Assembly: GCA_003194525.1 (NCBI GenBank)
Contig: NBIV01000352.1
Coordinates: 1-59,876 of the forward strand
Length of the DNA stretch: 59,876 nt
Direction: 5' to 3'
Origin: Gracilariopsis chorda
Taxonomy: Eukaryota > Rhodophyta > Florideophyceae > Gracilariales > Gracilariaceae
Both the position numbers and the translations under genes were made by a program. Below the pieces are notes generated by a model. The model was not told the DNA's origin and made no database searches. It saw nothing but the letters and a program-made list of their open reading frames with translations. Numbering within the stretch: the stretch's first letter is position 1; each line of letters starts with the position of its first letter. Shown piece after piece: positions 30,400 to 58,300 of the stretch.

Positions 30400-30400
30400 A

Positions 30401-31059: not shown

Positions 31060-31064
31060 ATCAA

Positions 31065-32406: not shown

Positions 32407-32434
32407 GTCCTCCATGGCCAATTGTCAAAATTGG

Positions 32435-32656
32435 TTATTTCCTATCAATGGCAGCAATTGTGTTGCGCTGTCTGCGCGAGCCCGACTTCTTGGTTTCTTC
32501 CAAGTACTCCTGTAAAAGATCGGGCATGTCATGCTTCAGTGATTCGATATCTACCCAATTCGTTTCGTCCTTCCCGAAACCAGTCCACTTTACCAGCAGT
32601 TCTGTCTTGTTGTTTTTCCTTCGGATGTCTTCAAAATCCTCGATAACTAGTAACTC
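32435..32656 (-). pseudogene. Gypsy-3 chromodomain
   Basis: In this frame the minus strand encodes ELLVIEDFEDIRRK, then TELLVKWTGFGKDETNWVDI and a C-terminal helix, a chromodomain close to that of Gypsy-1. It is out of frame with the integrase end at 32647. It is identical in the right arm at 53359-53580. Confidence 0.82.
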
Positions 32657-34026: not shown

Positions 34027-35132
34027 CTGCTAAGCATATCGGCCCAGACGTTTCGTTCCCCAGAGACGTGTTCGATTCTGAAACGAAAATCATTCAGCTT
34101 CAGAGCCCAACGGGTGAGTTTGTTGGCAACGTGCCGAGCTACGCCTAGATTGTGACCGTACGGGTCGTAGATATACATGAGGTTCGCATGATCGGTATAT
34201 ATGGAAACCGTTCGTCCGATGGTGAGGTGGTCTAGTCTGCACATAGACTCCAGGATCGCTAGTATTTCCTTCTCATGTACGCTCCACCTCTCTGAAGATC
34301 CCCTGATTGCACCAGATAAAAAACACAGAGGCTCTTTTGTTTGTTCTTCGAGTGCTTCTTTCTCCTTATTCTTTGGAGACTGGGTCAAATTCCCCGCCCA
34401 GTGTTTTTCTGAAGCTTCGGTGAAGACATAGACTCTGTAGTCTTCCTTGGGGAGTGAGAGCTTCTTTACAGCAGCCAATTGGCTTTTAACCAGATCAAAT
34501 GCGTGGGAGTGCTCGCCTTTCGAGTTGAGCTGCACTTTCTTGAGTGCCTTCTTGCTCCATTTCCCGGCCTTCCTACACGCTTCTTCAAGGAGCTGGTGTA
34601 GTGGTTTCACTAGACGCGCGTAGTCCGAGATGGATTTCTTCATCCAGTTTGCCGCACAAAGCAGTTGCTGTAGCTCGTCTCCCCTTTTCGGTGCTTTCAT
34701 CGCCAACAAAACCTCGAAGTTTCTAGGGTCAAACTGGACACCTTTGGATGAAATTAGCCTGCCACAGAACTTCACATTTGTTGTGAAGAAGCAGGACTTT
34801 CTTGGATTCACTTTGAATCCCACTTCTGTACACACTTTGAGAAATGCTGCAATGTCCGCTAGCAGCTGATCTTCGTTCTCAGCGTGGATAAGGAAGTCGT
34901 AGAGCCGTTGCAGCATGCGCTGTAGCCTGCCCTCGAACTTTTTCCATGTCACAGATTGAAAGTGGTTTCCAGAGTCCGTACCTCCCTGGAGTGATCTAGG
35001 CGGAGAGTAGATTACCAGTGGTGTCTGAATAGACGTAATATCCTGAGATATCTTCTGCAATGGTTTTTGCCAGTATCCGTGCGTGAAGTCGATGTCGGCA
35101 AAGCACTTGCTTCCTCCGCAGTCCTGCAACAT
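33969..35132 (-). pseudogene. Gypsy-3 RT palm to RNase H
   Basis: 387 codons open. RT shows FADIDFTHGYWQKPL. The active-site box is RLYDF at 34896-34907, so the first catalytic Asp is replaced by Tyr and polymerase activity must be lost. RNase H shows VYVFTEASEKHWAG (Asp of the first strand is Glu), CRLDHL, IYTDHANLMYI and VWADMLSRW. The frame is preceded by a TAA at 35133-35135, where Gypsy-1 has Glu in the MPHL-E-SKFQ context. Confidence 0.88.
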
Positions 35133-35135
35133 TGA

Positions 35136-36461
35136 TTACAGATGCGGCATTGCGGACTGAAGTGGTAGAGTTCGTGCATTTGTCACGCGCAAGTCGATAG
35201 TAAAACGAAGTTTGTCTGTACCGGGTTTCGGAACTGCCAGTGCGGGACATGCCCGTCTTGCCTGGTCGTTCTTGTAAACCGCATCTATTTTCTCTAGCTT
35301 TTGAATGGTGTGCTTGATATCAACTCTTTGTGCTGGAGAATACCGGCACTGGGGCGTACGGTATGACTTAGCGTTTGGCGCAAGCTTGACAGAGAGGGGG
35401 CGCACCTTGGCCGGGGGATGTGGTCCCAACTTGATACCAAAACGGCTGCGGTTCTCTTCCAAAAGAGCGCGCAACTTCTCCAATCCTGCGGAAGACATAA
35501 GGTTCTCCTTGGCGTCGTCTGCTGCAGACCGGATTGCTTCATTGATTTCTTCAACGGTGTCGATTCCGAATCCGGCTTGGAGACATTCCGGGAGCTCGAT
35601 TGGATCCTCTTCTTCGTCTGTGTAGCTCAGTCTTCGATAGCTTGCAGACCCCAGCCTACAGTTCCGTTCCAGCACTTCCTTTTCCGAATTTCCGTCAAGG
35701 AGTGTGGCTACGCAGTGGAGGTGCTCGTTAAAATCGAAACATATGGCTTTCAAGAGGGGTCTTCCTAGAAGAACTTCAGGCATTCCGGTGTCCGCAATCA
35801 AGAACTGCACTCCACGGACTAGTACGGGCAGTCCGGTCTGTGGCAGCAGGATTGTGAGATCGAGGTTCACTCTTCTCGACGCGGTTGCGGATGGTACTCG
35901 TTCGTCTGCCTTCAACGCATTATTGAGGGTCATAAGGGTTTCAAGTTCTTCTGCCGCTGGTTCGGGGTACTCTGCCGAAACAGACTTTAAAACGTCAGAG
36001 GGGATTGTCAAATAGTCTGTCCTGGAGTCGCCCAAGGATACGGTATCGATGTCGTTTAGACGGATTCTGTACCTTTCTTCTTCAGCATTTGGGTCAGGCT
36101 CGGGTGCAGATCGCAATATGGTGGCTTTCGCGGTTTTCCTGTTATTGCACGTTCTTCCGAAGTGCTTTTCAAGAAGCTTGCATCTCTTCTCATTCGTGGT
36201 TGCGAGGGATTTGCTGATCGGATGTACTTCTGAGCACTCCTTGGTGTTCACACATGGCTCGTCCCATTCCCCAGCTTCGAATTTCTCGGTTGCTCTCTTC
36301 GTTTCGCTTTTTGGGCCTTCGCTGCCTGGAGTCTGCGGTCGTGAGCCTCTTCGGGATTTCTTCCTCTCTGGCTCTTCAGACTTTCTAGTGTGTCCTCCAT
36401 TATCGCGCCTATGCGTGAGTTTACGCTTGAACTTCAAACTCGCGCACTGTACCAGATGCAC
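35136..36461 (-). pseudogene. Gypsy-3 zinc knuckle, protease and RT N-terminus
   Basis: 441 codons open on the minus strand. A degenerate zinc knuckle (CVNTKECSEVHPIS) comes first, then protease with GDSRTD in place of the D-S-G motif and MPEVLLGRPLL. The RT fingers follow (YRTPQCRYSPAQRVDIKHTI and LRFTIDLRVTNART). Loss of the Gly in the protease active site predicts an inactive enzyme. The part from about 35946 downwards in coordinate is duplicated in the right arm. Confidence 0.87.
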
Positions 36462-40253: not shown

Positions 40254-40276
40254 ACTTGAAACCCTTATGACTCTCA

Positions 40277-40300
40277 GGGCCGTTCTATGAGTTTCTAAAT
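40277..40300 (+). repeat. Left terminal inverted repeat of the Harbinger element
   Basis: 24 bp, the exact reverse complement of 50065-50088. Confidence 0.95.
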
Positions 40301-40369
40301 GAAGCGAAACGAAACTGGAAAATTACTCTCGAGCAATCAGGCATTTACAAGTTGCCTCCAAACGCTTCA

Positions 40370-40424
40370 AGATTTCGTTTAATGTAGGGAGCAACAATCG
40401 CGCTCCCTACATTAAACGAAATCT
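40370..40424. repeat. Subterminal hairpin of the Harbinger element
   Basis: Perfect 23 bp arms (40370-40392 and 40402-40424) around a 9 nt loop, about 70 bp inside the TIR and upstream of the accessory gene. It may be a transposase binding or promoter element; no counterpart was found at the right end. Confidence 0.85.
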
Positions 40425-40572
40425 GAACGTTGAAAGAGTACACTTCACAGTTGCATTCAGTCAAAAACAAGCTTCCATCCTACAAGTCTAAATCACAAAC
40501 CTAGAATTGCGTGGTTTCAATAACTATGATCTCTTTCTTTCCGCACTTCGTGAATGACTAAAAACAGCTGGT

Positions 40573-41820
40573 ATGAACATGACAGACTCTGATCTGCAGC
40601 CATCAAGTACGCATGAAGTTGGAACCCGTACTCAGCCACCTCCAAAAAAGCTTCATGAAGCTTGTAATCAACTTGATGCTTACACATTTCGCAACTCACA
40701 ATGTAAGAAAGCGTTGAAGGTGCTCAAAGTTAGCGGAGCCAATAACGCGAAGATAGATACAAAGCGCAAAATTATATCCATGAAAATGGTACAGCGGAAA
40801 ATAAGCGCATCGAATCTTGTTCAGGTAATGCAAAACGTAGTACCCAGCTCTAACAATGTTTCTACTCACATCCAAGACTTACCACATACGACAGTTCGTA
40901 TAAATAAATCTGAATCTGGGAGAGAGCAGATCGATTTCATTCAAGGAGATGCACTGCAACTGATCGGAGATAAATTTGTCGTAGGAAAACCATCACTACA
41001 ATCTTTTTACAACAATTCGTCTCCCAACGAAAGTCGAAACCCGGCTTTTGAAGCCGCAGAGTATTGTAGACTGCTTCATGTCTTTGCGGACCCACGTATG
41101 ACTGCAGCAAGAATCAAACTAATGGAATGCTTAACCAGAGAGGAGCTTGATCGACAGAATGAAGATCCATGGAGTGAACAAATCGCGCCGTTATTTAATG
41201 ACATTTCCTTCAAACCTGCTTCAAACACAACTCTTTCCGGAGGTATCACATCCGACGATATATGTATGCTCAATCCTGCTGAGCGTCCTTATATTCGTGA
41301 AGGTGGTGTGTTAAAGAGAAAGTTTGCAGAATTCAAAAGCGTATACGGCCAGTGCTTAGAAAAATTTGAGGCGTCGGGGCAAGGAGATCCAGAAGCGTTC
41401 GCTAGGTTTGCCGACGGCAAAGCATACATTATGTACGGATACTGCTTTCTGCAGCTACACCCTATTTTGAAACAATTTGTTACCCGCGCATTGAAGAGTG
41501 ATGCTCAAGGGGAGGAAGGGGTGGGGTATGGGGTCAACCCATACGGGTCTGGAGGAAATGAGTTTTTCCGTGACCAACAGAAGAGACTAAAGCGAGATGT
41601 GCATGATGTTAATTTTGTTGGTTTAGATGAGCTGGTATCGGCCTTAAAGCAGCAGCGAAATGTCCCAGCTGAATTAGAACAACTGGAAAAGCGACGGCTA
41701 CAGTTTGAAGTCATGGAAGCACAAGCTCGCTCTACTACGTCTGCGCTGGAAGCGACAGTGCGCGTGAAGGATATGTTGGAGCGAGGCATTAGTGCGGAAG
41801 AAAAGGCTTTGTTTAAATGA
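40573..41820 (+). CDS. Harbinger accessory protein, SANT/Myb-like (inferred)
   Basis: 415 codons without interruption, ATG at 40573. Residues 240-310 contain LKRKFAEFKSVYGQCLEKFE followed by SGQGDPEAFARFADGKAYIM and LHPILKQFVTRAL. This arrangement resembles, as far as I remember, the region that follows the SANT/Myb domain in accessory proteins of stramenopile Harbinger elements. Residues 345-415 look like a coiled coil (RLKRDVHDVNF, then AELEQLEKRRLQFEVMEAQA). In this superfamily such a protein helps the transposase enter the nucleus and find the ends. The family assignment is inference; the intact state and position inside the TIRs are seen. It ends 86 bp before the captured remodeller starts. 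Confidence 0.6.
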   Translation: MNMTDSDLQPSSTHEVGTRTQPPPKKLHEACNQLDAYTFRNSQCKKALKVLKVSGANNAKIDTKRKIISMKMVQRKISASNLVQVMQNVVPSSNNVSTHIQDLPHTTVRINKSESGREQIDFIQGDALQLIGDKFVVGKPSLQSFYNNSSPNESRNPAFEAAEYCRLLHVFADPRMTAARIKLMECLTREELDRQNEDPWSEQIAPLFNDISFKPASNTTLSGGITSDDICMLNPAERPYIREGGVLKRKFAEFKSVYGQCLEKFEASGQGDPEAFARFADGKAYIMYGYCFLQLHPILKQFVTRALKSDAQGEEGVGYGVNPYGSGGNEFFRDQQKRLKRDVHDVNFVGLDELVSALKQQRNVPAELEQLEKRRLQFEVMEAQARSTTSALEATVRVKDMLERGISAEEKALFK

Positions 41821-41906
41821 GTTCTAAACAACCTCAAAGCATCTCTTGAGTCAGAAAGAGCTGCATAGTAGCATAACCTCTGCAGGAAGCGGCGAATTCT
41901 ATGTAA

Positions 41907-44900
41907 TGCAAAGTAATGGGCACGGCTTGTTCAAAATGTTCCCTGCAAAGATCCGAAGTCCATTATATTATTGAAGAAGCAGTACGGTTGGCTACCGATT
42001 TCATCGGAGAGCGCAAGTGGAAAATACAAATGGCGAGAAAGATTGCAAAGATGTTTGTACAGTACCACAATCAGCGGAGACGTCGTCAAGCTACAGCTCA
42101 AGTAGAAGAATTGCAACGAATTCGAAAACTTGCAACTTCTGTGGCAAAGAATGTCTCGAAGTTTTGGAGGCAAATTGGGGAGATTGTTGAGATTACAGAG
42201 CCGTTTTAAAGACTAAAGCCCAGCAGGACAAGGAAAGGCGACCTAAACTCAAGGACCTTTTTGAGAAAACAGAAGCACTCTCATCAGAGCTTGTATCTAC
42301 GCTCCGAGTCCCTCCTTCAGCTAATCATCATAACGACGCCTGAAATGTGGTAAAGCATGTATGCTTTGGTGGTGGAAGCGTTGAGAGCCATGCAGGGGAT
42401 AGGGCAGAAGGTGCTCTTCTTCCAGAAGGTAGTCCTGATGAGAATAGTTTACGACAACAGTCTACAACCATTGTCCGCGTCACAGGCTATGTTCCGAGTC
42501 CTGGCAACAGCAAACAAGAGGATTGTGACTCTGAGTTTTCGAGTCATGCCAGTAACTCTGCCGAAGAGCACACTGATGGCTTCGATGATGAAACCACTAT
42601 GGCCATTGCAGAAGCAGAAGAAGAAAGGGATCCAAATTAATTGCGTGCATTACGAACTCAGGCTGATTTGCCACTCTATGACTTACTTCGTTCTCTGTTT
42701 ATTGATGTGAAGAAGTATTTTTCAGAAAAGAACTCAAACACAGCGTTGGAGAAAGACGTCGACGATTCAGACGTGAGTGAGCCTACATCCTGGGATGAAG
42801 TTGTTGATGATGAAGAGACAATAAGAGCTGCGGAGGCTGAAGACGTGCCGGATGTACATGAGGGTCAAAGGCTGGCCGACGAGGCAGCAGCCAGCATTGA
42901 AGAGATATTGAGAGCCCAAGGAATAGACCCTGATGTGTATAGAACAGATCAGACGGTATACTTGAAACCACAGAGTGGATCAAAAGTTTCCACTCTATCT
43001 ACGGATGCGAACAATGATCCAAAATCTAAACTTCTCTCTCCGATAGAGAATGGGGTTAAGGAAGATGATGCAGGAATTGCAATGGGTCAGGAAAGGTGTA
43101 ACATGTCATCTGTAAATATTGAACATGTAATCAAAGACCGTAACACGAATGCTGCCACGGTAGAGAAGTACTCTTCAATGAATGGACAGTCTACAAAGAT
43201 TAACGAAGAGGATCGTACGCATCCTTCCAGAGAATCGCCATGTTTGTCCGAACCACAAACTAATGGCAACTCTAACCATTCACCATCCGGTCAGGGAAAA
43301 GGACAGGTCGAGGAATCCTCAAGAGCTGTCGAGAACGGTAAAGCACTTCCTGTTCATGTCGTTCGAAAGTATGTTTCGAGTACTCATTTAACAAGTATGC
43401 TATTTCGTGGAAACCATCGAGATTACCAAAGAAGAGGTTTGGAATGGCTACTGACGCTTTGGCGCAAAAACCTCAATGGAGTACTAGCGGATGACATGGG
43501 ACTTGGAAAGACCATTCAGACTATTGATCTCTTGGCATGGTTGGCTCTTGAGAAAGGGGTGTGGGGTCTACACCTCATTGTTGTTCCGACCTCAGTTATG
43601 GTGAACTGAGAAGTAGAATTCAAGAAATGGCTGCCAGGATTCAAGGTTTTGACGTATTTTGGCTCTGTCAAGGAACGAAAAGCGAAACGCCGCGGTTGGA
43701 CAAGGCCTGATATGTTTCATGTGTATATCACTTCCTACACCCTGGCAGTGCAAGATTCCATTATATTACGTCGGAAGAAGTGGTACTACTTGATCTTGGA
43801 TGAGGCCCATAACATCAAGAACTTTGAATCTCAGAGGTGGCAAACACTACTAACCTTCTCATCGAGACATCGTCTGTTGCTAACAGGTACTCCTCTGCAA
43901 AATTCTGTTGTGGAGCTTTAGTCTTCAATGCATTTCTTGATGCCCAAACTGTTCGAAAGCCATTCATGGTTCAAGGATACTTTTTGGAAGCCTGTTATTG
44001 AAGTCACAGAAGCAGAAAAAGACCTGAACCATGGTAAGTCTGAAACATTCTGCACTCTACACGGCATTCTTCGCCCTTTCTTGCTTCGTCGGTTGAAGAA
44101 AGATGTTGAGAAAGGGCTACCGCCCAAGTAAGAACACATAATATTATGTCGTCTGAGCAAACGGCAACGGCAGCTTTATGAAGATTTCATGGCTCGAGGT
44201 GACACACGAGAAACATTGAAGTCAAAAGATATGCTTGGAGTTATGAATGTTCTCCTTCAGCTACGAAAAGTCTGTAACCACCCTGACCTTTTCGAAGGGC
44301 GTCCAATTTTATCGCCATTTTCTAGTGATGCCATTTTCTTACCCGTGCCTATGATAGTGGCACGAGCGATTCAAGATGATCCAAGACATTATGTAACACT
44401 GCATCTTATGTGTTTAGATTTTCAGTACGGGGAGCACAACTCGCCTGGCAAATGGTATGAAAACGAACTGGAACGTCTATCGGCCGTAAAGGTAATGCGA
44501 GACGGAATGGATAGTCCTAAGTGTTTAGGATCTCTGCATGAGTCCCAAGAGAGCTTGGAATTTCGAACAGGTAGTCAACGTGCCCAACATCGAAGAACCG
44601 CATCTCGCTATGCTACTCTGCACCACCAAGTTTTGGTACATGCACTAAGGATCAGACAACGGGCGCTTCTAGGACAGGATTTACGTGGTATATATTCGAT
44701 GACGGTTTCGTCCTTGTTTCATGTGCTTCAGAAAGATTCCCCTTCAGGTTTTTTGTGGGATACCCTTCGACCTTCATTGGTTCGTTCCATCGAACAGGTA
44801 TTGGAACAGGCTAAACCAATAGCTAATCGTTTTGTGTGCTGCATTACCAAAGTAATCGCGCCCACTGTTCAGCTTCGTTTCTATAGGGATGATATGTCAC

Positions 44901-47900
44901 GCTTTCGTGAGCGAGACAGTTTTCGAGAGCTCACCCGGGCGTCATCGGGACTACGTGCTCTTTTTCGTGAATTTGAAGTTCGTAGTCAGGTGACGATTCC
45001 AGACACTAGACTTGTGCAATGGGACTGTGGTAAGCTACAAACTCTAGATCACTTGTTACGTGAGCTTAAGGTTCGGAAGTCGCGTGCGTTGATCTTCACA
45101 CAGATGACGAGAATGCTTGACATTCTGGAATCATTTCTGAATCTCCATTGCTTTCGATACCATCGTTTGGATGGTACAAAAAAGACTGACGAAAGACAAA
45201 GAGTGGTGGAACGGTTTAACTCTGATTCAAGAATCCTCTCTATGATACTAACCACTCGTGCAGGAGGCGTTGGGATTAACTTAACTGGTGCCGACACGGT
45301 GATTTTCTATGACTCTTATTACAACCCTGCGATTAATAATCAAGCCCAAGACCGTGCGCATCGTATTGGGCAAACGAAGCCTGTACATGTGTACCGCCTG
45401 ATTTCGGAACAAACTGTAGAGGAAAACGTTCTGAAATGGGCAATGGGGAAGCGTTCACTGGAGCAGCAAATAATTTCACATGCTGGTTCACCATGGATGG
45501 AATTCAGAGATATCGAGATTCCTCCAAAATGGTAAAGTCTCCACAGAATACCTGAGAAAGCCAGACCTCACTTCCTGCTGTTCATAATGAAAGACTTGGA
45601 GCTCCCAAGAACGGAATACGAAGCAGCTCACCGACTCCGAAATCTATACTACTGCAGGACCTAGCAGAAAACGGTAGGAGCCGACCAGTTTCTTCAGAAT
45701 CATTGCGGAGTGCCGAGAGTACTGGTGTCCAATGCTCCTACGGGGAGTTTACAGTATTCAGAGCAGCAAATAAGAGCGAAATGGAGAATGGTATGGCAAA
45801 GGCAAGCAGTGAGGCAGTGATTCAGGACGTTGGGGATGGCTCTGATGAGTACCAAGAATTAACTTCCAAGCTTCTAGCCAGGGAAGATGAGCGTGAAGAA
45901 CTAGCCCTCCAAGCTGCCGAGAAAGAAAAACATGACCTAGAAGCTGAGTTTAAGGACAACCCGGAAGATCATCATATTGATGCGACGAGGGCCGACAACA
46001 AAAGCAGTCGAACTAATGAGTTTGCGAAGGTCGTGAACTCTCTAACCTGTATTCAGAGATACGCAATTCGTGTTTTTGAACGTATGAGTGGGGCAGAATC
46101 TCTTCCTGAGCACTCGCATGGCAACAAAATTGGTGCAAATTGGGCTACTCCTGGATTCGATTCTGTACTTGGAGAGTGCTCTCGTCCAGATGATGCAAAT
46201 GATTCTGAAGTCGAGAGCACTGGAGAAGATGATACGGAGACTCTGCTGTATGAAGTGGATATTACTGATGATGGACATGCAAGCTATGTAAAAGCGCTGA
46301 CGAACGCCGACGCGGACATTAATATGTACCTGTCGCTACGCGACGGTGGTCCGGAAGAGCTTAACTTTTCGTCGGTAGTACATGGCACCGCAGTGGCTGG
46401 TTTAGAATGTGCGGAAGATGCAGCTTTCTTCCCGCACCCTTACAACAGAATGAGCCGGACAATGCATGCAACGAGAAGGCAGAAAGAGAAGGGTCTTGAG
46501 AACCTGCGGAAGATGAAGGCTGAAATTGAGAGAAGACGCAAGTTGGAAGCAGCATGTTCTGCTCCTAACCAAACGAGCAGCCGCGCTGCATTTTCTGTGG
46601 ACTCCTACAGGGATGAGCAGCTTAAGGGATCAGGTGCCACGGATCATGCAAGGACAACAAAAGGAAAACCCGAGCTACTATCCATCTCAATCCAATCTGC
46701 TTCGAAGAAGAGCAGAGCGGATTCTTCTTCTAGGTCGAAGAACGCAATGAGTGTAGCTAGTGCAGGTTCAGGATCTGATACACATCATTCGAGTATGTGT
46801 CTATTCAAGAACAAGCCAAAGAAAAACACGAAACGGTTTGCGATTCCTGGAATTAAGTTTTCAATTGCGAACTATGGAAGCAGCATATCTAACGAATCTA
46901 AAAGAGTAAACGATGGCTGGACCAAGGAGGAGGATGAGGCCTTGATCGATGCTGCCTCTGAGTGTAACAACAATATGTTTCTCGTGGCTGACCTTCTGTC
47001 TTCGGATCCACTCGTACGAATGGGAGTTCGTCGATTCAGGCCAGTCCGGCATTGTGTAGATAGGCTTCTCAATGATTTTCGAAAGGATATCAAGAGCGGT
47101 CGACCGGTTCTGAGGGCAATTATAAGCGATCGGGAAATTGTGCATAATTATCATTCCGCGTTGCAACGTGCCGTCAGTGCTTTACGTACAAAGGCTGTGT
47201 CAAATAGCGGACAGCCGGGACTTGAGTTGCATTCATCCCACCAGAAGTTAATGTCTGAAGCGACATCAAAGATGAAGGGGATGGTGAGGCTAGAGCTTTT
47301 GCCACCCCTGACCGCAGTTCTTAAGTGCTTCAATATTCCTGAGAACCATAAGCCCGGAATGAAAACGACCAAAACAGGGCCTCAGGCTGTTTACAAGCGT
47401 CGACGGCCTTTCATGTTTCCTCCTAGAGATGATATCTGACTCTTAAAGCGTACAGGTGGACTTTCAACCGCTGATGGTGCTTCTTATCAAGATCAACCAG
47501 CAATAAAGAGTGGAGACCCAAATCGCTTCCAAAAGGGGCCAGGCAGAGGAGGTCGAAACATGAATTTTGGAGCATCGTCGCGTCGTAACGGTCAGATTCG
47601 CAATGCTGCCGGCTCTCGAGGTTCTACACCGAAGATGAAGACAGTTGATTTGAAAACGGAGAATCAGTCGACTTCCCATCGTCCCCAAGAGGCTGGAAAT
47701 GTTCTGCCGCCTCATAGCATATCTCGCAGGGAATCCAACCCTTCAACTATAAAGTCTTCTGGTTACAAACATGTGAACCTGGGAAATAGTGGACAAAGTG
47801 TTTCAGTGTCAAAAAAAGGAAGATGGCCAAAGCCAGATAGGATCCGTCAACCACACTGTTGTGATGACTCGTGTAGCTACCTCAGCTGTGCAGAATGCAG

Positions 47901-48468
47901 CGAAGTATTCTCGTTCTACAGCTGATCTTCCCAAGTCCTGGGGAATGCCTCCATCTAACGCGGGGAGCACATTGAAGGCAACTTCTGGAAAGATTGCCGG
48001 ATCTCAAGGCGTCGTACAGTCAATGGTCACCACCTCCATGCTCCAGAACGGAGATGCGCGGGTTTATTCTTTGGGGACTCCCGCGCTCTTGACTGGTTCA
48101 CAATTCCGTATAGGACGAGTATTAAACTACGGAGGAGGTGACCACAATTATAAAGCTCTCTATTCTTAGTATGTGTCATCATCACTTCAACCTGGGACCG
48201 GCAGCGGTAATCCACTGGCGCGTTGTCGGGGGACTGCCTGCACAGCGGAGCCCCAGTAGGTCCCAGTGCCGGCACAGGCAGGACTAATCAGGGACTAGAT
48301 GGTTCATCAAAAGGAAACAATAGCATGACAGTGAATCGTGGTACCGTGAGCATGGCACGAGAGGCATTAGAGCTGGAAATGCTGCAACGATCAGAGGTGC
48401 GTCAAGAGGCGCATCTAGATGTCCATCAAGAGGGGCGTCAAGGGGCGCATCAAGAGGAGTAGCTTGAG
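41907..48468 (+). pseudogene. SWR1/PIE1/p400-like Snf2 chromatin-remodelling ATPase, captured and decayed
   Basis: HSA domain at 41955-42190 (RKWKIQMARKIAKMFVQYHN, then VAKNVSKFWRQIGEIVE). A one-base shift at about 42190 leads into the linker and acidic region. Helicase lobe 1 starts at about 43400: motif I DDMGLGKT (usually DEMGLGKT), DEAH box in LDEAHNIKN, LLTGTPLQN. Lobe 2 is in 44189-45535: LIFTQMTRMLDILE, TTRAGGVGINLTGADTVIFY, QAQDRAHRIGQ. After a second shift (45535-45556) come LTCIQRYAIRVFE and a SANT-like WTKEEDEALIDAA (about 46918-46960), then a Gly/Ser/Gln-rich tail to about 48468. In-frame stops: TGA 42341, TAA 42638, TGA 43607 (at a conserved Trp), TAG 43919 (conserved Trp), TAA 44129 (usually Tyr), TGA 47437. 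The N-terminus before HSA is absent. Family: ATPase that exchanges H2A.Z into nucleosomes; this copy cannot work. Confidence 0.9.
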
Positions 48469-48593
48469 TTACCATTTCGAACCCGGCTAGCATGGGTATA
48501 GCTATCGGAAGAGCTGTTGGTTTAGGACGTGGCAATGTGGCGTCCCGGTCAGATACAGGTGCAGAACTCGTTAGAACTCGAAGAGGAGGTTTA

Positions 48594-49823
48594 CTAGAAC
48601 GTCTTTTCATATAAAACTCGTCTTCGCAGGTATCCTAGCCTATGAAGCTTTTCTGCAAGTTCATTGCGCCGCGACGACGTTTCTCTTCGCCTGTTCCTTG
48701 ACCGTCTGTTTTCGCCTTCTGTGTGAGAGTCATTCTGAAAGTGTATGATAGGCGTACCAGTCACACGATTATCATCATGATGCGGTACGAGTTCAAACAC
48801 CGAGCTGTCTCCATTATCAATAATGAAGTTGTGGAGTTTGCACGTGACCATAATGATAAGTGTAGAAGTTGGCAACGAGTAACGAAGAGCTGACCAAAAG
48901 ATGCCAAATCGGCATACAGGCATCCCGAACGCCTGCTCGCAACAAACTGTGGATAAAGAATGATATGCGTTGAAAGAATCTTCTTTTGTACTTAGATTTC
49001 GTCCTGGATACGGCGTTAGAATTCTGTGCTCGTTTGTATACGCTTCATCAACAACAACAGCTGCCCACGATGGTAGCGGTGGACCACTTAACAAATCGTA
49101 CAATAAAGTTGCCTTAAAAGCTGTAGAATCATGCGTTCCACCCGCATGTCGCGCCGAAACGAAGCAGAATTTGTAGTCTGCTTGAACTGCTGCCTGCACA
49201 CAGATTGCAAAAAACCCTTTGCGATTGTAGTACTTACGAGGATCTGACGCTTCTTGAAGCTTAGGCCGAATAATTTCGATCGCGATACCATCCAAGGGTG
49301 CCACTACACCATCAAGTGGACTTCGGTGACGTTTCTCGAACATATCCGCGCTTGCAAAACACTCTTCAAAAGAGATCGGAAATCGAATTTGTGGAAAAAC
49401 TTCATTTAGAACGTGAAGAGTTTCATGAAACACATGATATACGGTAGAATCAGCAACACCATATGCCCACCCGAGGTCTAAATAGCTTGCACCTGCTAAG
49501 AGCCGTAAAGTTAAACATAGCATAACAGGTACGGATACAGAAGCAGCAATATAGCTCCGCTTTCTTTGCATTCTCAAGAGTTTGACTGAGAGAAGTTTGG
49601 AAAGGATATTAAACTGCTCTTTTGAGAGACGGTACATTCGGCGAAACAATTGAGTAGAAAGAGTAGCCATATGAGCTTCAAAGTTGAATTGTGGTTTCGG
49701 AACAACAGGGCTTTTGAAATGTAAAGGTGAACATAGGTCCGCTGCAATGGTGAGAAGAATAATACAAATAACGGTAAGCACGCTTTCGTTTTGTGTAGTT
49801 GATGAGTCTACGAACACACTCAT
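48594..49823 (-). CDS. PIF/Harbinger DDE transposase (DDE_Tnp_4 type)
   Basis: 409 codons, ATG at 49823, no interruption. Residues 10-30 are hydrophobic. A helix-turn-helix-like region (YRLSKEQFNILSKLL, residues 64-78, to GWAYGVADSTVYHVFHETL, residues 118-136) precedes the catalytic core. The acidic residues are D178 in APLDGIAI, D232 in GGTHDSTAF and E296 in CCEQAFGMP. VVVDEAY at 257-262 and the Arg-rich C-terminus (355-400) fit the family, as does the length. It reads inward from the right TIR, convergent with the cargo. Together with the accessory protein it should be sufficient for mobility. The strongest sign of recent activity is that it is fully open next to a heavily mutated cargo. 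Confidence 0.93.
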   Translation of the reverse strand: MSVFVDSSTTQNESVLTVICIILLTIAADLCSPLHFKSPVVPKPQFNFEAHMATLSTQLFRRMYRLSKEQFNILSKLLSVKLLRMQRKRSYIAASVSVPVMLCLTLRLLAGASYLDLGWAYGVADSTVYHVFHETLHVLNEVFPQIRFPISFEECFASADMFEKRHRSPLDGVVAPLDGIAIEIIRPKLQEASDPRKYYNRKGFFAICVQAAVQADYKFCFVSARHAGGTHDSTAFKATLLYDLLSGPPLPSWAAVVVDEAYTNEHRILTPYPGRNLSTKEDSFNAYHSLSTVCCEQAFGMPVCRFGIFWSALRYSLPTSTLIIMVTCKLHNFIIDNGDSSVFELVPHHDDNRVTGTPIIHFQNDSHTEGENRRSRNRRRETSSRRNELAEKLHRLGYLRRRVLYEKTF

Positions 49824-50064
49824 TGCTCTGGAAGGATCTTTCTTGGTTAATAGAGCGCGATGTCTTGGTCTGTGACGTTGCTTTCAAATTCGCGGATATT
49901 GGCGTTGCGTTACCCGTTCTAACGTTGGCATGGCGCAAGGGTGGCCGTAAGCGTACTGAATTGTCTCTGGGAGGGTATGGGGCTCGCTTTAAGGAAAAAC
50001 TCATAGAATGAAGCCTTGGCTGAAAGCTTGAAGTTGACCGCGTAACACGTTTACATCCGTTAAA

Positions 50065-50088
50065 ATTTAGAAACTCATAGAACGGCCC
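50065..50088 (-). repeat. Right terminal inverted repeat of the Harbinger element
   Basis: 24 bp perfect match to 40277-40300 in inverse orientation; TCA follows. Confidence 0.95.
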
Positions 50089-50097
50089 TCAGTAATG

Positions 50098-53000
50098 CGT
50101 TGAAGGCAGACGAACGAGTACCATCCGCAACCGCGTCGAGAAGAGTGAACCTCGATCTCACAATCCTGCTGCCACAGACCGGACTGCCCGTACTAGTCCG
50201 TGGAGTGCAGTTCTTGATTGCGGACACCGGAATGCCTGAAGTTCTTCTAGGAAGACCCCTCTTGAAAGCCATATGTTTCGATTTTAACGAGCACCTCCAC
50301 TGCGTAGCCACACTCCTTGACGGAAATTCGGAAAAGGAAGTGCTGGAACGGAACTGTAGGCTGGGGTCTGCAAGCTATCGAAGACTGAGCTACACAGACG
50401 AAGAAGAGGATCCAATCGAGCTCCCGGAATGTCTCCAAGCCGGATTCGGAATCGACACCGTTGAAGAAATCAATGAAGCAATCCGGTCTGCAGCAGACGA
50501 CGCCAAGGAGAACCTTATGTCTTCCGCAGGATTGGAGAAGTTGCGCGCTCTTTTGGAAGAGAACCGCAGCCGTTTTGGTATCAAGTTGGGACCACATCCC
50601 CCGGCCAAGGTGCGCCCCCTCTCTGTCAAGCTTGCGCCAAACGCTAAGTCATACCGTACGCCCCAGTGCCGGTATTCTCCAGCACAAAGAGTTGATATCA
50701 AGCACACCATTCAAAAGCTAGAGAAAATAGATGCGGTTTACAAGAACGACCAGGCAAGACGGGCATGTCCCGCACTGGCAGTTCCGAAACCCGGTACAGA
50801 CAAACTTCGTTTTACTATCGACTTGCGCGTGACAAATGCACGAACTCTACCACTTCAGTCCGCAATGCCGCATCTGTAATCAATGTTGCAGGACTGCGGA
50901 GGAAGCAAGTGCTTTGCCGACATCGACTTCACGCACGGATACTGGCAAAAACCATTGCAGAAGATATCTCAGGATATTACGTCTATTCAGACACCACTGG
51001 TAATCTACTCTCCGCCTAGATCACTCCAGGGAGGTACGGACTCTGGAAACCACTTTCAATCTGTGACATGGAAAAAGTTCGAGGGCAGGCTACAGCGCAT
51101 GCTGCAACGGCTCTACGACTTCCTTATCCACGCTGAGAACGAAGATCAGCTGCTAGCGGACATTGCAGCATTTCTCAAAGTGTGTACAGAAGTGGGATTC
51201 AAAGTGAATCCAAGAAAGTCCTGCTTCTTCACAACAAATGTGAAGTTCTGTGGCAGGCTAATTTCATCCAAAGGTGTCCAGTTTGACCCTAGAAACTTCG
51301 AGGTTTTGTTGGCGATGAAAGCACCGAAAAGGGGAGACGAGCTACAGCAACTGCTTTGTGCGGCAAACTGGATGAAGAAATCCATCTCGGACTACGCGCG
51401 TCTAGTGAAACCACTACACCAGCTCCTTGAAGAAGCGTGTAGGAAGGCCGGGAAATGGAGCAAGAAGGCACTCAAGAAAGTGCAGCTCAACTCGAAAGGC
51501 GAGCACTCCCACGCATTTGATCTGGTTAAAAGCCAATTGGCTGCTGTAAAGAAGCTCTCACTCCCCAAGGAAGACTACAGAGTCTATGTCTTCACCGAAG
51601 CTTCAGAAAAACACTGGGCGGGGAATTTGACCCAGTCTCCAAAGAATAAGGAGAAAGAAGCACTCGAAGAACAAACAAAAGAGCCTCTGTGTTTTTTATC
51701 TGGTGCAATCAGGGGATCTTCAGAGAGGTGGAGCGTACATGAGAAGGAAATACTAGCGATCCTGGAGTCTATGTGCAGACTAGACCACCTCACCATCGGA
51801 CGAACGGTTTCCATATATACCGATCATGCGAACCTCATGTATATCTACGACCCGTACGGTCACAATCTAGGCGTAGCTCGGCACGTTGCCAACAAACTCA
51901 CCCGTTGGGCTCTGAAGCTGAATGATTTTCGTTTCAGAATCGAACACGTCTCTGGGGAACGAAACGTCTGGGCCGATATGCTTAGCAGATGGGCTGTCCA
52001 GACAAAGAGAACCGTAGAACCCAGAACAATGGACGCAAAAGAGTAGGGATGTCTGCACCTTTCAACCCTGGAACGAACGAAGACTATGACTGGCCCTCTA
52101 TGGAAGATATTGCCACGTCACAGCGCAGCAGTCGCACTCAGCCCCCGAAAAGTTGCGAAAAGACAGGCGGCGTGGTAAGAATGCCGCCAGGACTGGTTTG
52201 GAGACCAGAGAACGATGTAAATCTGCCGCTTAGGATCCTCATCGCTGGTCACACTGGAAAAAGGGGACACCGAGCAACAGACCCTACGTTTTTCACCGTC
52301 GCCGCAAATTTCTGGTGGAAAGACCTCCGAAGACACACCTTCGAGTTTACACGCTCAATTTTCCGCTGTATCGCCATCGAATCCGGTAAAGCAGTTCTGA
52401 GGCCTCTGGGTCACACGATTCATGCGAGCAAGCCCAAAGAACTCCTGCATTTTGACTACTGTTACATGACCAAGGAGGAATAAGGAAAATCGTACAAGCT
52501 GATCATCAAGCACGACCTTTCAGGCTACGTTTGGCTTAAAGACGAAGAAAAAGCAGAATCAGAAACGACAGCAGAAGCTTTAGTAGACTGGTTTGTCACG
52601 TTTGGGGTCCCAAAGTCTTGGGTATCGAACCAAGGCAGTCATTGCAAGAACAAGCTCGTGAAAACACTCGCTCAAAAGCTCAAATCACACCATCATTTCA
52701 CACTACTGTACTGTCCATGCATTAACGGGTCAGTCGAAGTCGTTTGTCGGGAGCTACTAAGAACATGCCGAGCACTATTGTCCGAATTCCAAGTACCGTA
52801 TTTTGCTTGGGCTGCCGTCTTACCACTTATCCAGTCAGCCTTGAATAGCATGCCAACAAGGAAACTAAATGGAAAATGTCCGCTCACAGTGTTTACTGGA
52901 CTACCGCAACACTCGCTGCTTGCCGCCATTCTTAGAAACCCGGAGAACTTATTTGCAATCAAGGACATCTACGGCTGTCACCCGAAGGCTCTAATAAAGA

Positions 53001-53580
53001 TTGAGAAGCTACAAAAGGCGCTGGACGACATTTATCGTATCTGTGCGGATCGGGGAAAGAAAAGACGCCAGTCTGCAGTCCATGCCGACAACAGACGCAC
53101 AGGAATCAAAAGTATTGACTTCATGAAAGGCGAATAAGTGCTCAAGGCTATTATGCAGAAGAACATCCACGCGAAAACCAGTCTGCGCTGGCAGGGAGCA
53201 TTCTGCGTAGGCCAGTGCCGAGAGCACTACATATTTGAAGTCGAAAACCTCCTGACAGTAGAGAAACAACTTGTGCATGGAAGGAGACTTCAGCTATTTT
53301 GTAATAAGTACTACGAGGTAACAGAAGAGCTCAAGGAGTACACGCCTATCAACAGAATGAGTTACTAGTTATCGAGGATTTTGAAGACATCCGAAGGAAA
53401 AACAACAAGACAGAACTGCTGGTAAAGTGGACTGGTTTCGGGAAGGACGAAACGAATTGGGTAGATATCGAATCACTGAAGCATGACATGCCCGATCTTT
53501 TACAGGAGTACTTGGAAGAAACCAAGAAGTCGGGCTCGCGCAGACAGCGCAACACAATTGCTGCCATTGATAGGAAATAA
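50098..53580 (+). pseudogene. Gypsy-3 copy: protease, RT, RNase H, integrase, chromodomain
   Basis: Blocks and lesions match the left copy: protease and RT start 50098-50879; stop TAA 50877-50879; RT/RNase H 50883-52046 with the dead RLYD box at 51108-51119; integrase in 51989-52483, 52658-53137 and 53138-53368; chromodomain 53359-53580. One visible substitution replaces Val by Ala after the zinc-binding head (near 52391). The shared lesions show that both copies descend from an already dead element. Confidence 0.9.
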
Positions 53581-53608
53581 CCAATTTTGACAATTGGCCA
53601 TGGAGGAC

Positions 53609-53909
53609 TGTTGATGGCAGCGTCCGCAGCTGCGTAGATGGCGGTCTGCGTCAGACATCATCATCGTCTTTCAGTAGATTGTAGCTCACTCAATTTACAG
53701 TGCACCCAAAGTAGATGGGTGGCGCACCCCAAAGAGGAAGGAACCTCTTTGGGAAAAAAAACGCCCGAGCGAGGCAAAATAAATACCCGACTCCAGCGTC
53801 AGAAGCTAAGGAGTTGGAGGAATCCCAAGAGGAACTTCCTAGGTCCTTGTGCCTGCTTTTTGCCTGCGCCTCAACATCTGTATGCCCGTAACGCCAGTTC
53901 TGATCAACA
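53609..53909 (+). repeat. Gypsy-3 copy, 3' LTR
   Basis: 301 bp; differs from 32107-32406 by one extra A in the homopolymer at about 53755. Confidence 0.92.
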
Positions 53910-53914
53910 CTGCT

Positions 53915-54950
53915 CCACAGTCGGCAACCCTACATCATCATCCTCTTGGGGCTACGTGAACCGTCTTATGGGCGCTCGCCTAAATCGAGATGACTCTTTA
54001 TCATCGAATCATCTTCATCCCAACCGACCGAGAGTGAACTAAAAAATCGCTAGCCACGATGAACACCCCTTCCCACATCCCACGCTACTCGATCCAGTGA
54101 GCAATGACCAGCAGGAGGAGATTTCCAAAGCCGTGGCACACACGATTGCAGCAGGAGTACAAAACGGCATGCCTCCGAAGGATTCACTGAGGTTGAAGGA
54201 CTTGGTCGAAGATCACATCAAAGTTTTCAGAACTTCACTCTCTTCTGGACCCTCAGCAAAAGTTCCCCATTGAAGATCACGCTGACCCCAGACGCACGAC
54301 CCATTCGTGCCCGCCTGTGCAAATATTCTCAGGTCCAACGAAACTTCTTCAACAGCTTCGTCTCAGACCCCGTGCGCACCGGTATGGCGTATCCGAATCC
54401 GTCCTACCCATGGGCATCTGCCGCTTTGATCTTGCCCAAGCCAGGCCCGGCCCATTTCAGTTTTACCATTGACCTCAGACCAATCAACCACTTCACTTTT
54501 CGTCATCAGTTCCCCATGTCAAACATTGAGCAGGAGCTTTCGAGTCTTTCAAAGTCGCATTTCTTTGGTACCTTCGATCTCTCCACGGGTGCTGGCAGTT
54601 TCCTCTCGACAAAAGCTCCCAGGATTTTCAGTCTTTCATCACGCCTGACGGCATTTTCTCTCCAATGATAGTGCTACATGGCACCACCAACGCCACCACG
54701 CATCTCCAGTCCGTCCTCCGGACTGTGTTCCCAAATCAATTATCAGAGCAACTACTCTACTGGCTGGAAGATATACTGCTGCACAACAAAACGATTGAAG
54801 GCCTTCTCGAGTCAATGCGGATCCTCTTCCAAACTTGTGCACGTTTTTGCATTCGCCTACATCCCATGAAGTGCATTATTTTCGCTACGTCTATCCGTTG
54901 GTGTGGACGAATCATATCTGCTGAAGGCGTACGCTACGACCCACGGCTGC
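53915..54950 (+). pseudogene. Gypsy-2 RT segment in the right arm
   Basis: Mirror of 31065-32101. RT is split here into 54270-54668 and 54665-54958 by a one-base deletion at about 54586 (CTCCCACGG in the left arm, CTCCACGG here). The left arm is open across this point, so the deletion is specific to this copy or a sequence error. Confidence 0.88.
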
Positions 54951-54955
54951 TTGAT

Positions 54956-55320
54956 TGATGTTGAGTGTTGGCTGGCGGCGTCTACGTTACGGCGTGCTGT
55001 CAGGAAGGGAAGGGAAGGGATAGGAGCTAGACAAAGAAAGAATGGGCACACCCACGTGGCTTTTTTTCCTCTCGTGGATACCTCCGAAGCGAGTCGGAGG
55101 TTTTTATAGGCGCCCCATGCCATCTCAGTTGTCTGCCGAGATGACAAGAATAGACTATTGCGCAATCTATCAGTACTACTAAGCTAGAGTAGTTACAGTA
55201 CTGAATTGACGTGCGCAAGATAATGACGTAAGAAATTCAGACGCATTTGTCGCCTAATTATACTTGTGCATTTGCGCCCAAATTTTGTGCGACGCGACAG
55301 CCGCAGCAGATTACACAACA
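54956..55320 (-). repeat. Gypsy-1 copy, 3' LTR
   Basis: 365 bp, aligned without gaps to 30695-31059; TATA box at 55101-55108. Confidence 0.94.
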
Positions 55321-55356
55321 GCGCCCCGTAAGTTCTGAAGTGAGAACCGAAGATTC

Positions 55357-58300
55357 TTACATGACTGCAGCGGCTAAGTTGCGTTGCCGCTTCGTACCAA
55401 TCCGAGACAATTCTCCCAGATATTCCCTAACCAGTACAGGAACATCATCCCGCAGGGATTCGATTGTGACCCAGTCCGTCTCTTCAGCCGAAAACCCCCG
55501 CCACTTTACCAAAAACTCAACGGTACCTTGCTTTCTTCTGATGTCCTGAAAGCAATCGACCACCAGAAGTTCCCCTTGTTGGTAGGACAGGTAGTCCCGA
55601 AGTTCTTCGGTCACTTCAAACTCCTTGTTCCGAAAAAAACTTCAGGCGCCTTCCGTGCACCTCTTGCTTCGTCCCATCCAGTAGCGACTCTACAACGAAA
55701 ATGTACTCAGAACGACATTCCGCCACACGGTAGGGCCCCATCCATTTGAGAGATGGCTTTCGAGTGCGTTCTCTCTGCAGTACACGACGTAAGACAAAGT
55801 CGCCTTCTGAGAAATTGACGGCACGAACACTCGTCTTTCTGTTGTGTGATTCTACAGCCTTTCTTCGTTTCTCAGTGGATCGTGCTGCCACGTCCTTGTG
55901 CATATCCGAGAAGGCCTGTAGAGTAGCGTCAATGTTATGTAATTGACGGAGGCGAATACTGTCCGGGGAGATAATGCGGCACTTCCCGTTTTCTTTGCGC
56001 GTAATTGCTGAAAGTGGAGTATCTTGCTCGTGCCCAGTGAATACTGTAAGACGACAGCGATTACCGAGGCGTTCAAGGATGGAGCTATTCAGCGCGGATT
56101 GTACCACCGGAAGGATACTCGGCCAGCAGTTCTGCGGAAGCTGGTACTCAGAAAGTAAAGCTCGACATGCTCGTAGCAGCTCGCGACACACCACTTCGAC
56201 AGTGCCATTTGACCAGGGGCAATACGCTAGAGTGAAATGATGCGAAGACTTTGTTCTGTCCTTAAGATGACATACAACTTCATTCTTGAAGTGGGAGCCT
56301 CTATCGGAAACCCATTGTTGCACGACTCCAAATGCTGCAAACCACCTGATCAATTCATCGGCGACCACTTCGGCTGTAGTCTCCGTTGTAGGCACGAGCC
56401 AAACGTAGCCACTGTGGTCGTCTTTGAGCACGATTACATAAAGAAAGTCATTCTCTGCAGGGGACATGTAGCAAAAATCGAAATGCAGCAGATCGTTCGG
56501 CTGATCAGCGTGAAGAGCATGTCCCAACGGGCGAGGAATAGTCTTGGCTGGTTCTGTTCAAAGGCAATGGAGACATGTCTTCACAAATGACTTAAGATCT
56601 TCATCCATTCCCTTCCAGAAGAAATAAGCCTTCGTGGTTGCTATGGTGACATTGGAGCTCCTATGCCCGCCAGGTCCGGTGTGTGCTGCGATCGCTACGC
56701 GCAGCTTGAGAAGTTTGCAGTGCGATGGGATCCACAGAATGTCCTTATCGCTTCGCATGACGCCTTTTGACTTCCTGAACCCCTTCGGCGGCACTTCCTT
56801 GCTCGATGACTGTGCTGCTTGATGTCATTGAGATCAGGCCAGTCTAACTTGGGGTCTGTGCCCGGATTAATTGGTGCCACCATGAGAGCTTTAAAACGTA
56901 GAACATTGACTGCCCTTACTGTTCGCCTTGGGTTGACAGCCCAGCGGGTGAGCATGTCGGCCCACACGTTGTGATCCCCGGGCAGGTGCTCTACGACATA
57001 CCGAAACGCACTGAGTTTGATGGCCCAGCGCATCAATTTGCTTGCAGTCTGTCGAGCAATGCCTGGGTTTCTACCATAAGGATCGTACAGGTATACAAGG
57101 TTGGCGTGATCCGTGAAGATGTTCACTTCATGTCCGGTTACCAAATAATCCAAACGGCACATGGACTCTACTATTGCAAACCCTTCCTTCTCCGGTACGG
57201 ACCAGTTGACAGCTGATCCTGAAAACGAACCAGAGAGGAAGCATAAGGGTTCATGGTGCTGCTCTTCAATGGGCTTGCGTCGCTCTTCGGTTGGCACTTG
57301 AGTGAGAATAGCGGCCCAGTGTGAATTTGATGCGTCCGTAAAAAGGCACAGCTGATGGTTCTTCTTAGGATGCGCAAGTTTGACGGCAGCGGTCAGTTGG
57401 CGTTTGATGTCAGCGAAAGCTGCATCGTGTTCAGCGCCCCATGAGTCGGTGACGGAGAGGTTGCGCAGGCACGTTTGGTTCTCTTTCCAACCTGCGAGTA
57501 GCAGCGTTCGAGTAATTGATGGAGAGGAGCGATGCGCTCAGAGTAAGATGGAATCGAATTTTGCATCCAGTTTGTGGCGCACACAAACTGCTGAAGCTCG
57601 CATGCCATAGTCGGCTTCGTCATCTGAACTAGGGCCTCGTAGTGACGTGGATGGTACTGTACTCCATCTGCGGAGATTATACGTCCACAAAATTGCACTT
57701 GGCGCGCAAATAGAGTGGTCTTCTCCGCATGAATCTTCAGCCCGATATCTTCGCATACGAGGAAAAACGCTTCGAGATTGGATAACAGCTCTTGCTCATT
57801 CTTGGCGTAGAACAAGAAATCATCAATCCACTGCAGCATCTTTTCTACTTGTCCCTGAAATTTGTCGGCCAGCACGGCCTGGAAGTGATTACCAGAGTCA
57901 CTGCCGCCTTGTAGGAGACGTTTAGAGGAGTACACTCCAATTGAAGTCTGGATGGACATCATTTCCTGTGATTCTGCCGAAAGTGGTACTTGCCAATAGC
58001 CGTGAGCCAGGTCGATATTGGCAAAACACGTGCTTCCGGTGACGTCCTGGAACTTCGATTCCAGGTGTGGCATGGCGGATTGTATTGGTACAGTACGCGC
58101 ATTGGGGCCGCGGAGGTCAACCGTGAACCGTAGTTTGGTCGAACCAGGTTTTGCTACAGCGAGCGCAGGCGAAGCCCACCTGGCCGATGGGTTCTTGTAG
58201 ATGGCTCCTACGGTCTCCAGTTCGCGAATCGTCTGCACGATGAAGTCTCTCTGCTGAGGCGCATAGCGTCTCTGTGGAGATCTGTAAGGGTTTGCGTTCT

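What the first reader, a model, noticed from the sequence alone, without database searches (positions are those of the whole stretch)
40277..50088. A Harbinger transposon that captured a nearly complete SWR1/PIE1-type chromatin remodeller
Seen: 24 bp perfect TIRs, a 3 bp TSD, an empty site in the left arm, an intact DDE transposase, an intact accessory protein, and between them 6.5 kb with HSA, both Snf2 lobes and a SANT-like domain. Known: Harbinger elements are normally 2-6 kb and carry two genes; SWR1-family ATPases exchange H2A.Z. Inference: gene capture by a DNA transposon of an almost full-length remodeller, a cargo I do not know from this superfamily. While intact, such cargo could have altered chromatin at insertion sites in the element's favour.
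Basis: partly seen in the sequence, partly recalled or inferred. Interest (0 to 1): 0.92.

Follow-up and report, generated by a model that had tools for sequence, protein, structure and literature searches.

The report
Transposon carrying captured, dead SWR1 gene
A jumping gene in a red-algal genome swallowed most of the host's SWR1-type chromatin-remodelling gene and has copied it around the genome as a broken passenger, part of which looks rewritten by the intact host gene after the capture.

Summary
A 9.8-kb Harbinger-type transposon (40277-50088; perfect 24-bp TIRs, TCA/TCA target duplication, open transposase and accessory frames) carries 6.6 kb of a SWR1/SRCAP-type ATPase gene. Capture is confirmed: an intact host gene (contig C223, about 2,527 aa) lies outside any element found, and the cargo is its codons 161-2368, with the same junctions in 9 of 10 copies readable there. 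Thirteen copies with a family left end, the window's included, carry cargo. A benefit to the element is not supported: on internal branches accessory and transposase evolve under constraint (w 0.20, 0.35), the cargo does not (w 1.3), and four copies share premature stops. Two things go beyond the finding. The cargo is mosaic: its first 5.6 kb was apparently re-set from the host gene after capture (23 of 5,175 host-specific sites against 53 of 1,023 in the last 1 kb). And the same interval holds other host genes in sister Harbingers (a DUF676 esterase; an adaptor-subunit/Tic110-like fusion plus a peptidyl-tRNA hydrolase piece). Gene capture by DNA transposons, Harbingers included, is known; a 6.6-kb capture in an element keeping both transposition genes, with later rewriting, is a new variant.

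The parts
40274..40276 (.). target site duplication TCA, left
40277..40300 (+). left terminal inverted repeat, 24 bp perfect
40370..40424 (.). perfect 23-bp hairpin in the left end; matched on the opposite strand at 27 places of the genome, this one included
40576..41817 (+). accessory protein, 414 aa, no stop; no Pfam family; purifying selection on internal branches (w 0.195)
41962..48588 (+). captured host SWR1-type gene, host cds nt 482-7105, 95.7% identical, 9 stops and 5 frameshifts
41955..42134 (+). HSA domain of the cargo (profile match; its first bases lie just outside the aligned cargo)
43424..44290 (+). SNF2 N-terminal lobe of the cargo, split over four frames
45032..45370 (+). Helicase_C lobe of the cargo
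46918..47097 (+). weak Myb/SANT-like match, below Pfam cut-off
41962..47563 (+). part of the cargo re-set from the host gene (inferred gene-conversion tract; right edge approximate)
47564..48588 (+). part of the cargo that keeps the older divergence from the host gene
48594..49883 (-). DDE transposase frame (DDE_Tnp_4), no stop; w 0.349 on internal branches
50065..50088 (-). right terminal inverted repeat
50089..50091 (.). target site duplication TCA, right
35774..35946 (-). empty site in the other arm of the inverted repeat (23 bp of left flank covered)

Best explanation
A Harbinger-type DNA transposon of a gracilarioid red alga took up codons 161-2368 of a host SWR1/SRCAP-type ATPase gene into the interval between its two convergent genes. 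Because both transposition genes and both ends were kept, the element went on moving and carried the gene fragment as a passenger. Shown: the intact host gene, the same junctions in most copies, many copies of the element with the cargo, purifying selection on accessory and transposase but none detected on the cargo, stops shared between copies. Inferred: uptake as DNA; and, after the capture, overwriting of the first 5.6 kb of the cargo from the host gene in the lineage leading to the young copies (ectopic gene conversion, for instance repair of a break in the element with the homologous host gene as template), while the last 1 kb kept its older divergence. The same interval has taken other host genes in sister lineages; it may be a recurrent place of capture that survives because it leaves both transposition genes intact.
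For: Host gene: contig C223, 124672 to below 117218 (-), frame of 2,534 aa without a stop, aligned from residue 1 to P0001 (80% over 2,497 aa) and to Agarophyton chilense P0003 (57% over 2,487 aa). In C223:117218-125600 the only similarity to the element is the cargo itself, and no transposase or accessory hit is listed within 15 kb (capped lists). Cargo equals host cds 482-7105, same left junction in 9 of 10 and same right junction in 9 of 10 copies readable there, C155 being the exception. HSA profile: 14 matches, 12 in copies with a family left end (window included), one the C223 gene, one another gene on C9. Codon ML on nine copies plus host: host w 0.277 (2dlnL 20.9 against 1), cargo internal w 1.31 (2dlnL 2.15 against 1, 85.7 against 0.28); accessory internal w 0.195 (2dlnL 28.4), transposase 0.349 (2dlnL 7.7), terminal branches not different from 1 in both. 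Stops shared by WIN, C46, C24 and C8 at host codons 709, 883, 1986, 2328 (which counts from zero; 709 also in C155, 1986 also in C139). Mosaic: host differs from the agreeing young copies at 23 of 5,175 sites left and 53 of 1,023 right; dS host-C24 0.028, 0.029, 0.099 by region; right-part tree ladder-like with tips 0.077-0.105 from the host node, left-part tree a star from the host. Host-unique residues are not in excess over P0001-unique ones (30 against 45 of 1,333 columns), which argues against conversion from element to host.
Against: Internal cargo branches are short (total about 0.03), so brief or weak selection on an early cargo cannot be excluded. The breakpoint near host nt 6,080 was chosen after seeing the data. 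Not every pair of copies is flat along the cargo: dS C24-C294 goes 0.041, 0.055, 0.084, and C8-C139 falls 0.152, 0.107, 0.065. TE-gene dS exceeds cargo dS between young copies and C340/C302 (0.22-0.27 against 0.12-0.14), which conversion explains only in part. C155 has other host-side breakpoints and in two of three comparisons a cargo more diverged than its TE genes, so a second, independent capture is possible. Of 11 residues fixed between host and all cargo copies, P0001 sides with host at 4, cargo at 4, neither at 3, so they do not polarise the capture. No outgroup DNA was available. That C223 and its relatives are orthologues, and that C223 is the only SWR1-type gene outside elements, is inferred from full-length alignment and the HSA scan; the C9 gene was not classified.
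Confidence: 0.8

Rival explanations
1. The cargo was functional and selected in the element (for example altering chromatin at insertion sites) and died only recently.
For: The cargo is long and includes HSA and both ATPase lobes; C121 has only 2 in-frame stops over the 5,796 bases aligned; internal branches outside the youngest clade give w 0.93, on little data.
Against: Internal w 1.3, rejecting 0.28 by 2dlnL 85.7, while accessory and transposase show constraint; a 1-bp deletion near host nt 6760 is shared by WIN, C46, C24, C8, C294 and C139; C121 also has 6 frameshifts; the first 160 codons of the host gene are not in the cargo.
Confidence: 0.07
2. No gene conversion: the left part of the cargo differs from the right because the cargo was taken up in two steps, or because a young element recombined with an old one.
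For: The divergence step is sharp near host nt 6,080; exchange between copies is also suggested by C340, whose left cargo is less diverged from young copies than its right.
Against: Left and right junctions are the same in old and young copies, so a second capture would have had to recreate the old left junction; a recombination partner with a fresh left part would itself need recent host sequence.
Confidence: 0.2
3. The cargo acts at RNA level, as a source of small RNAs or antisense against the host SWR1 gene.
For: At least 13 element copies share long similar stretches with one host gene; codon neutrality does not bear on RNA-level effects.
Against: No transcript or small-RNA data were available; nothing seen in the sequence specifically points to it.
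Confidence: 0.08
4. The window locus is the host's native SWR1 gene broken by flanking transposon pieces.
For: None found beyond the identity itself.
Against: Intact gene on C223, aligned over nearly its whole length with relatives' proteins, and many copies with element ends.
Confidence: 0.01

Closest known systems
Pack-TYPE transposons (Pack-MULE, Pack-CACTA, Pack-PIF/Harbinger; PMC8903248: start of abstract and 12 of 29 matching passages seen)
   Same: host coding DNA between TIRs, multiplied by transposition; surveyed there for Harbinger-PIF in rice and maize too
   Different: defined there as non-autonomous; here both transposition genes are kept and have been under selection, and the piece is 6.6 kb of one gene
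Turmoil-1, Harbinger of C. elegans with two captured gene fragments (PMC2572040: passages seen)
   Same: Harbinger transposase plus captured host coding fragments, a capture hotspot tentatively inferred
   Different: fragments of two genes inside 760-bp ITRs of a 5-kb element; here one near-complete gene between the two convergent element genes
hAT of Pseudocercospora fijiensis carrying histone H3 (PMC6710886: abstract, sections 6 and 7 and passages read)
   Same: DNA transposon of about 9.5 kb amplifies a captured chromatin gene, the copies dead, the original kept by purifying selection
   Different: 136-aa gene, apparently from a transcript, inactivated by RIP; here 6.6 kb of a gene for a 2,527-aa protein, with apparent later rewriting from the host gene; of mutation signatures only the CpG share was looked at here
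Two-gene PIF/Harbinger elements (general knowledge, recalled)
   Same: DDE transposase of the DDE_Tnp_4 family, 3-bp TNA target duplication, second gene
   Different: the accessory protein gives no Pfam match; three relatives found, one named, from Chondrus crispus

Membership tests
PIF/Harbinger superfamily | DDE transposase of the Harbinger (DDE_Tnp_4 / IS5-like) type | tested here: met
   PF13359 E=4e-23; a D, D, E triad picked by eye at 198, 279, 316
PIF/Harbinger superfamily | 3-bp target duplication, TNA/TWA type | tested here: met
   6 of 7 copies with both ends held have matching TTA, TAA, TCA or TGA; C121 does not
PIF/Harbinger superfamily | short terminal inverted repeats | tested here: met
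   24 bp perfect
PIF/Harbinger superfamily | second gene for a Myb/SANT-like accessory protein | tested here: inconclusive
   second gene present and constrained, but no Pfam family, only insignificant NCBIfam matches, and a poor model, pLDDT 41.6
Pack-TYPE element | host coding DNA between TIRs, with the parental gene in the genome | tested here: met
Pack-TYPE element | non-autonomous, no transposase gene | tested here: not met
   transposase and accessory frames open in the window and under selection on internal branches; actual mobility not tested
SWR1/SRCAP/PIE1 ATPase (the cargo's parent gene) | HSA plus SNF2 with long insert between lobes, closer to SWR1/SRCAP than to INO80 | tested here: met
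   SRCAP 695 and SWR1 651 bits against Ino80 466 among PDB chains; HSA and both lobes
SWR1/SRCAP/PIE1 ATPase (the cargo's parent gene) | exchange of H2A.Z | not testable with these tools
   no biochemical data

The most novel reading that the evidence does not exclude
A lineage of autonomous Harbinger transposons in red algae has a stable cargo interval between its two convergent genes that repeatedly takes up long stretches of host genes, sometimes fused from several genes, and the captured gene keeps exchanging sequence with its parent by host-to-transposon gene conversion, so that copies look younger than they are.
Probability: 0.5. Interest if true: 0.68.

Novelty: new variant of a known kind. 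Interest (0 to 1): 0.55.

Why it matters
It shows that a DNA transposon can carry most of a gene for a 2,500-residue protein without losing its own transposition genes, and gives an internal comparison (selected transposition genes, neutral cargo, selected host gene) for asking whether captured genes help a transposon. The mosaic warns that ages of captured genes read from divergence to the parent gene can be badly wrong if the parent rewrites them. The several cargo types in one family offer a natural series for working out how capture happens.

Tried and rejected
Native host locus: rejected by the intact gene on C223. Separate later insertion of the SWR1 part into the element: no short flanking duplication seen by eye in the junction print-out, and the junctions are shared; no formal search was made. 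Element-to-host conversion: not favoured, since host-unique residues are not in excess. Hypermutation at CpG in old copies as the reason for uneven branch lengths: the CpG share of transitions is not higher in old copies (for example 31 of 124 in C24, 55 of 259 in C146, 25 of 205 in C155, printed before its error); other sequence contexts were not tested. Fold of the accessory protein: AlphaFold2 model too poor (pLDDT 41.6), so no fold search.

The Fisher test was run with 24 left sites; a recount of the bins gives 23; the p-value of 1e-24 is for 24, and the breakpoint was chosen. Rows left out: the codon model used 9 of the 15 projected cargo rows (not C302, C49, C195, C155, C223 old fragment, C219); C219 (69.6% to host) was never shown to be an element copy.
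Full report
What was checked. The window is the whole of contig C352 of a 91.3-Mb genome in 1,081 contigs. The closest SWR1 proteins with a species name come from Agarophyton chilense and Gracilaria domingensis, so the organism is taken to be a gracilarioid red alga; no tool names the species. The element runs from 40277 to 50088, with 24-bp perfect inverted repeats and TCA on both sides. Six of seven copies with both ends held have matching TNA duplications, C121 being the exception; one of the seven is a 0.6-kb deletion derivative without cargo.

Contents. The accessory frame (40576-41817, +) and the transposase frame (48597-49883, -) are open and converge on the cargo. The transposase matches DDE_Tnp_4; D198, D279 and E316 were picked by eye. 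The accessory protein matches no Pfam family, has three relatives in a word-limited search of 5.8 billion proteins, the one with a species name from Chondrus crispus, and gave no usable model. Between them lies a broken SWR1-type gene: HSA, SNF2 lobe over four frames, Helicase_C, and a sub-threshold Myb-like match.

The host gene. Contig C223 carries the same gene without a stop: frame of 2,534 aa, first ATG at 124672, minus strand, so about 2,527 aa; the last 42 codons or so were not read. It aligns from residue 1 with P0001 (80% over 2,497 aa), P0002 (58%) and P0003 (57%). In the stretch read, C223:117218-125600, nothing but the cargo resembles the element, and no transposase or accessory hit is listed within 15 kb (only 98 of 355 and 101 of 229 candidates were scored there). 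PDB matches rank SRCAP and SWR1 well above INO80. The cargo is host cds nt 482-7105, about 87% of the protein, at 95.7% DNA identity with 7 gap positions. The host gene shows no intron in the part held, so intron content cannot tell DNA from RNA capture; truncation on both sides fits DNA capture (inference).

Copies. The left-end query gave 68 matches, 15 of them over (nearly) the whole 424 bases, the window's own included. Twelve copies with such a left end have an HSA match (C8, C340, C302, C121, C49, C139, C352, C46, C146, C24, C294, C195), and C155, also with a left end, carries other parts of the cargo; that makes 13. Two more of the 15 (C2, C21) gave no cargo match. Further cargo pieces without a left end lie on C223 (18862-20086) and C219. 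The left junction is the same in 9 of 10 and the right junction in 9 of 10 copies readable there; C155 is the exception in both. In C155 the element is joined to host nt 1529 at a shared GATCCGAA(G/A)TC, and about 130 bp that match nothing else held, apart from a 14-base chance-level hit, precede the transposase end; this is either a deletion derivative or a second capture.

Selection. With copies aligned on host codons and separate w for host, internal and terminal branches (9 of the 15 projected cargo rows plus host, 2,207 codons), the host branch has w 0.277, internal cargo branches 1.31 and terminal branches 1.09. Internal w of 1 is not rejected (2dlnL 2.15), internal w of 0.28 is (2dlnL 85.7), and host w of 1 is (2dlnL 20.9). 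On internal branches the accessory gene has w 0.195 (10 copies, 2dlnL 28.4 against 1) and the transposase 0.349 (9 copies, 2dlnL 7.7), with terminal branches not different from 1; the cargo on the accessory's copies and tree gives 1.33 (2dlnL 2.06). The topologies were fixed by me from the cargo tree; C24 and C46 contribute 339 bases of transposase and C155 417 bases of accessory. WIN, C46, C24 and C8 share stops at host codons 709, 883, 1986 and 2328 (one search counts from zero; 709 also in C155, 1986 also in C139). So the transposition genes stayed under selection while the cargo was carried as dead weight.

Mosaic. Distances from host to young copies are about 0.02-0.04 along host nt 482-6081 and about 0.085-0.09 beyond. 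Sites where the host differs from the agreeing young copies (at least five of six present) number 23 of 5,175 left and 53 of 1,023 right (bins). dS host-C24 is 0.028, 0.029 and 0.099 in three parts, while C24-C121 stays at 0.054, 0.042, 0.062; but C24-C294 rises (0.041, 0.055, 0.084) and C8-C139 falls (0.152, 0.107, 0.065). The right-part tree is ladder-like and nearly clock-like, the left-part tree is a star from the host. At columns conserved in host and three relatives, all young copies differ at 3 of 1,009 left and 8 of 61 right. The simplest reading is that the left 5.6 kb of the cargo was rewritten from the host gene after capture. The reverse direction would have put a neutral phase into the host gene, and host-unique residues are not in excess (30 against 45 for P0001). 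Of 42 residues shared by the young copies and differing from the host, P0001 agrees with the host at 23, with the cargo at 7, with neither at 12. In keeping with rewriting, internal branches are shorter in the cargo (0.032) than in accessory (0.123) and transposase (0.080). Against a simple story: TE-gene dS between young copies and C340/C302 is about twice the cargo dS, and C340 is itself mosaic.

Other cargo in the same interval. Of 95 merged transposase hits, 68 have a convergent accessory hit within 20 kb; the gap is 74 bp in 4, 0.8-2.4 kb in 17 (one of them C155) and over 3 kb in 47. The hit lists are capped, partial hits lengthen the gaps, and a few partners are used twice. I read two non-SWR1 interiors, one of them only in part. 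C258 (2.9 of 5.5 kb read) holds a DUF676 esterase gene; matches to it lie between the two genes in C754, C772, C554, C282 and C402 as well, beside a transposase in C223 and C576, in a 490-aa frame without listed element genes on C11, and at seven weaker places without listed element genes. C2:1,095-1,101 kb holds a frame whose first part matches an adaptor-medium-subunit gene (C236, 87%) and whose second part matches a frame on C29 (83%), followed by a stretch with a sub-threshold Tic110 match and, on the other strand, a peptidyl-tRNA hydrolase piece. The parent of the last was not searched for, and the far end of this element was not read.

Literature. Ten searches of an open-access library; titles and starts of abstracts seen, and only 10 of 18 and 10 of 26 papers. 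Passages read: PMC2572040, PMC8903248, PMC6431247; abstract, sections 6 and 7 and passages of PMC6710886. No title or abstract start listed there describes a Harbinger carrying a remodeller gene or a gene-capturing Harbinger of red algae; most subscription papers and Repbase reports are outside the library.

Verdict. Observation confirmed, capture and spread confirmed, benefit to the element not supported. The host rewriting of the cargo and the recurrent capture interval are the parts worth following.

Noticed in passing
window 26135-35929 and 50086-59876: A 9.8-kb inverted repeat of 99.8% identity (11 mismatches, 8 gap positions) with retrotransposon-type frames; the right arm ends with the contig, and the element sits 23 bp inside the inner edge of the right arm. 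Real duplication or assembly artefact was not decided.
   Followed up: partly
L052 (C2:1091001-1101000) 6209-8986: Another Harbinger-family interval with a frame joined from an adaptor-subunit gene and a second host frame, a Tic110-like stretch (sub-threshold) and a peptidyl-tRNA hydrolase piece next to the transposase.
   Followed up: partly
L068 (C258:38601-41500) 1058-2525: DUF676 esterase cargo shared by several copies of a second Harbinger subfamily, with a 490-aa open frame on C11.
   Followed up: partly
C155:38513-42606: Most diverged element copy: same element-side breakpoints within a few bases, other host-side breakpoints, short shared motif at the left join. Deletion derivative or independent second capture.
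   Followed up: partly
window 40370-40424: Perfect 23-bp hairpin with 9-base loop in the left end; opposite-strand matches at 27 places in the genome, this one included; role unknown.
   Followed up: no
L008/L052, C2:1091850-1092444: 0.6-kb internally deleted relative with TGA duplications, a MITE-like derivative.
   Followed up: no
C223 (contig): One contig holds the host SWR1 gene, an old fragment of the SWR1 cargo (18862-20086) and a transposase with a DUF676 match beside it (140.9-144.6 kb).
   Followed up: no
window 14120-15904: Open frame of 594 aa (-) that by eye resembles an animal-type haem peroxidase; not tested.
   Followed up: no
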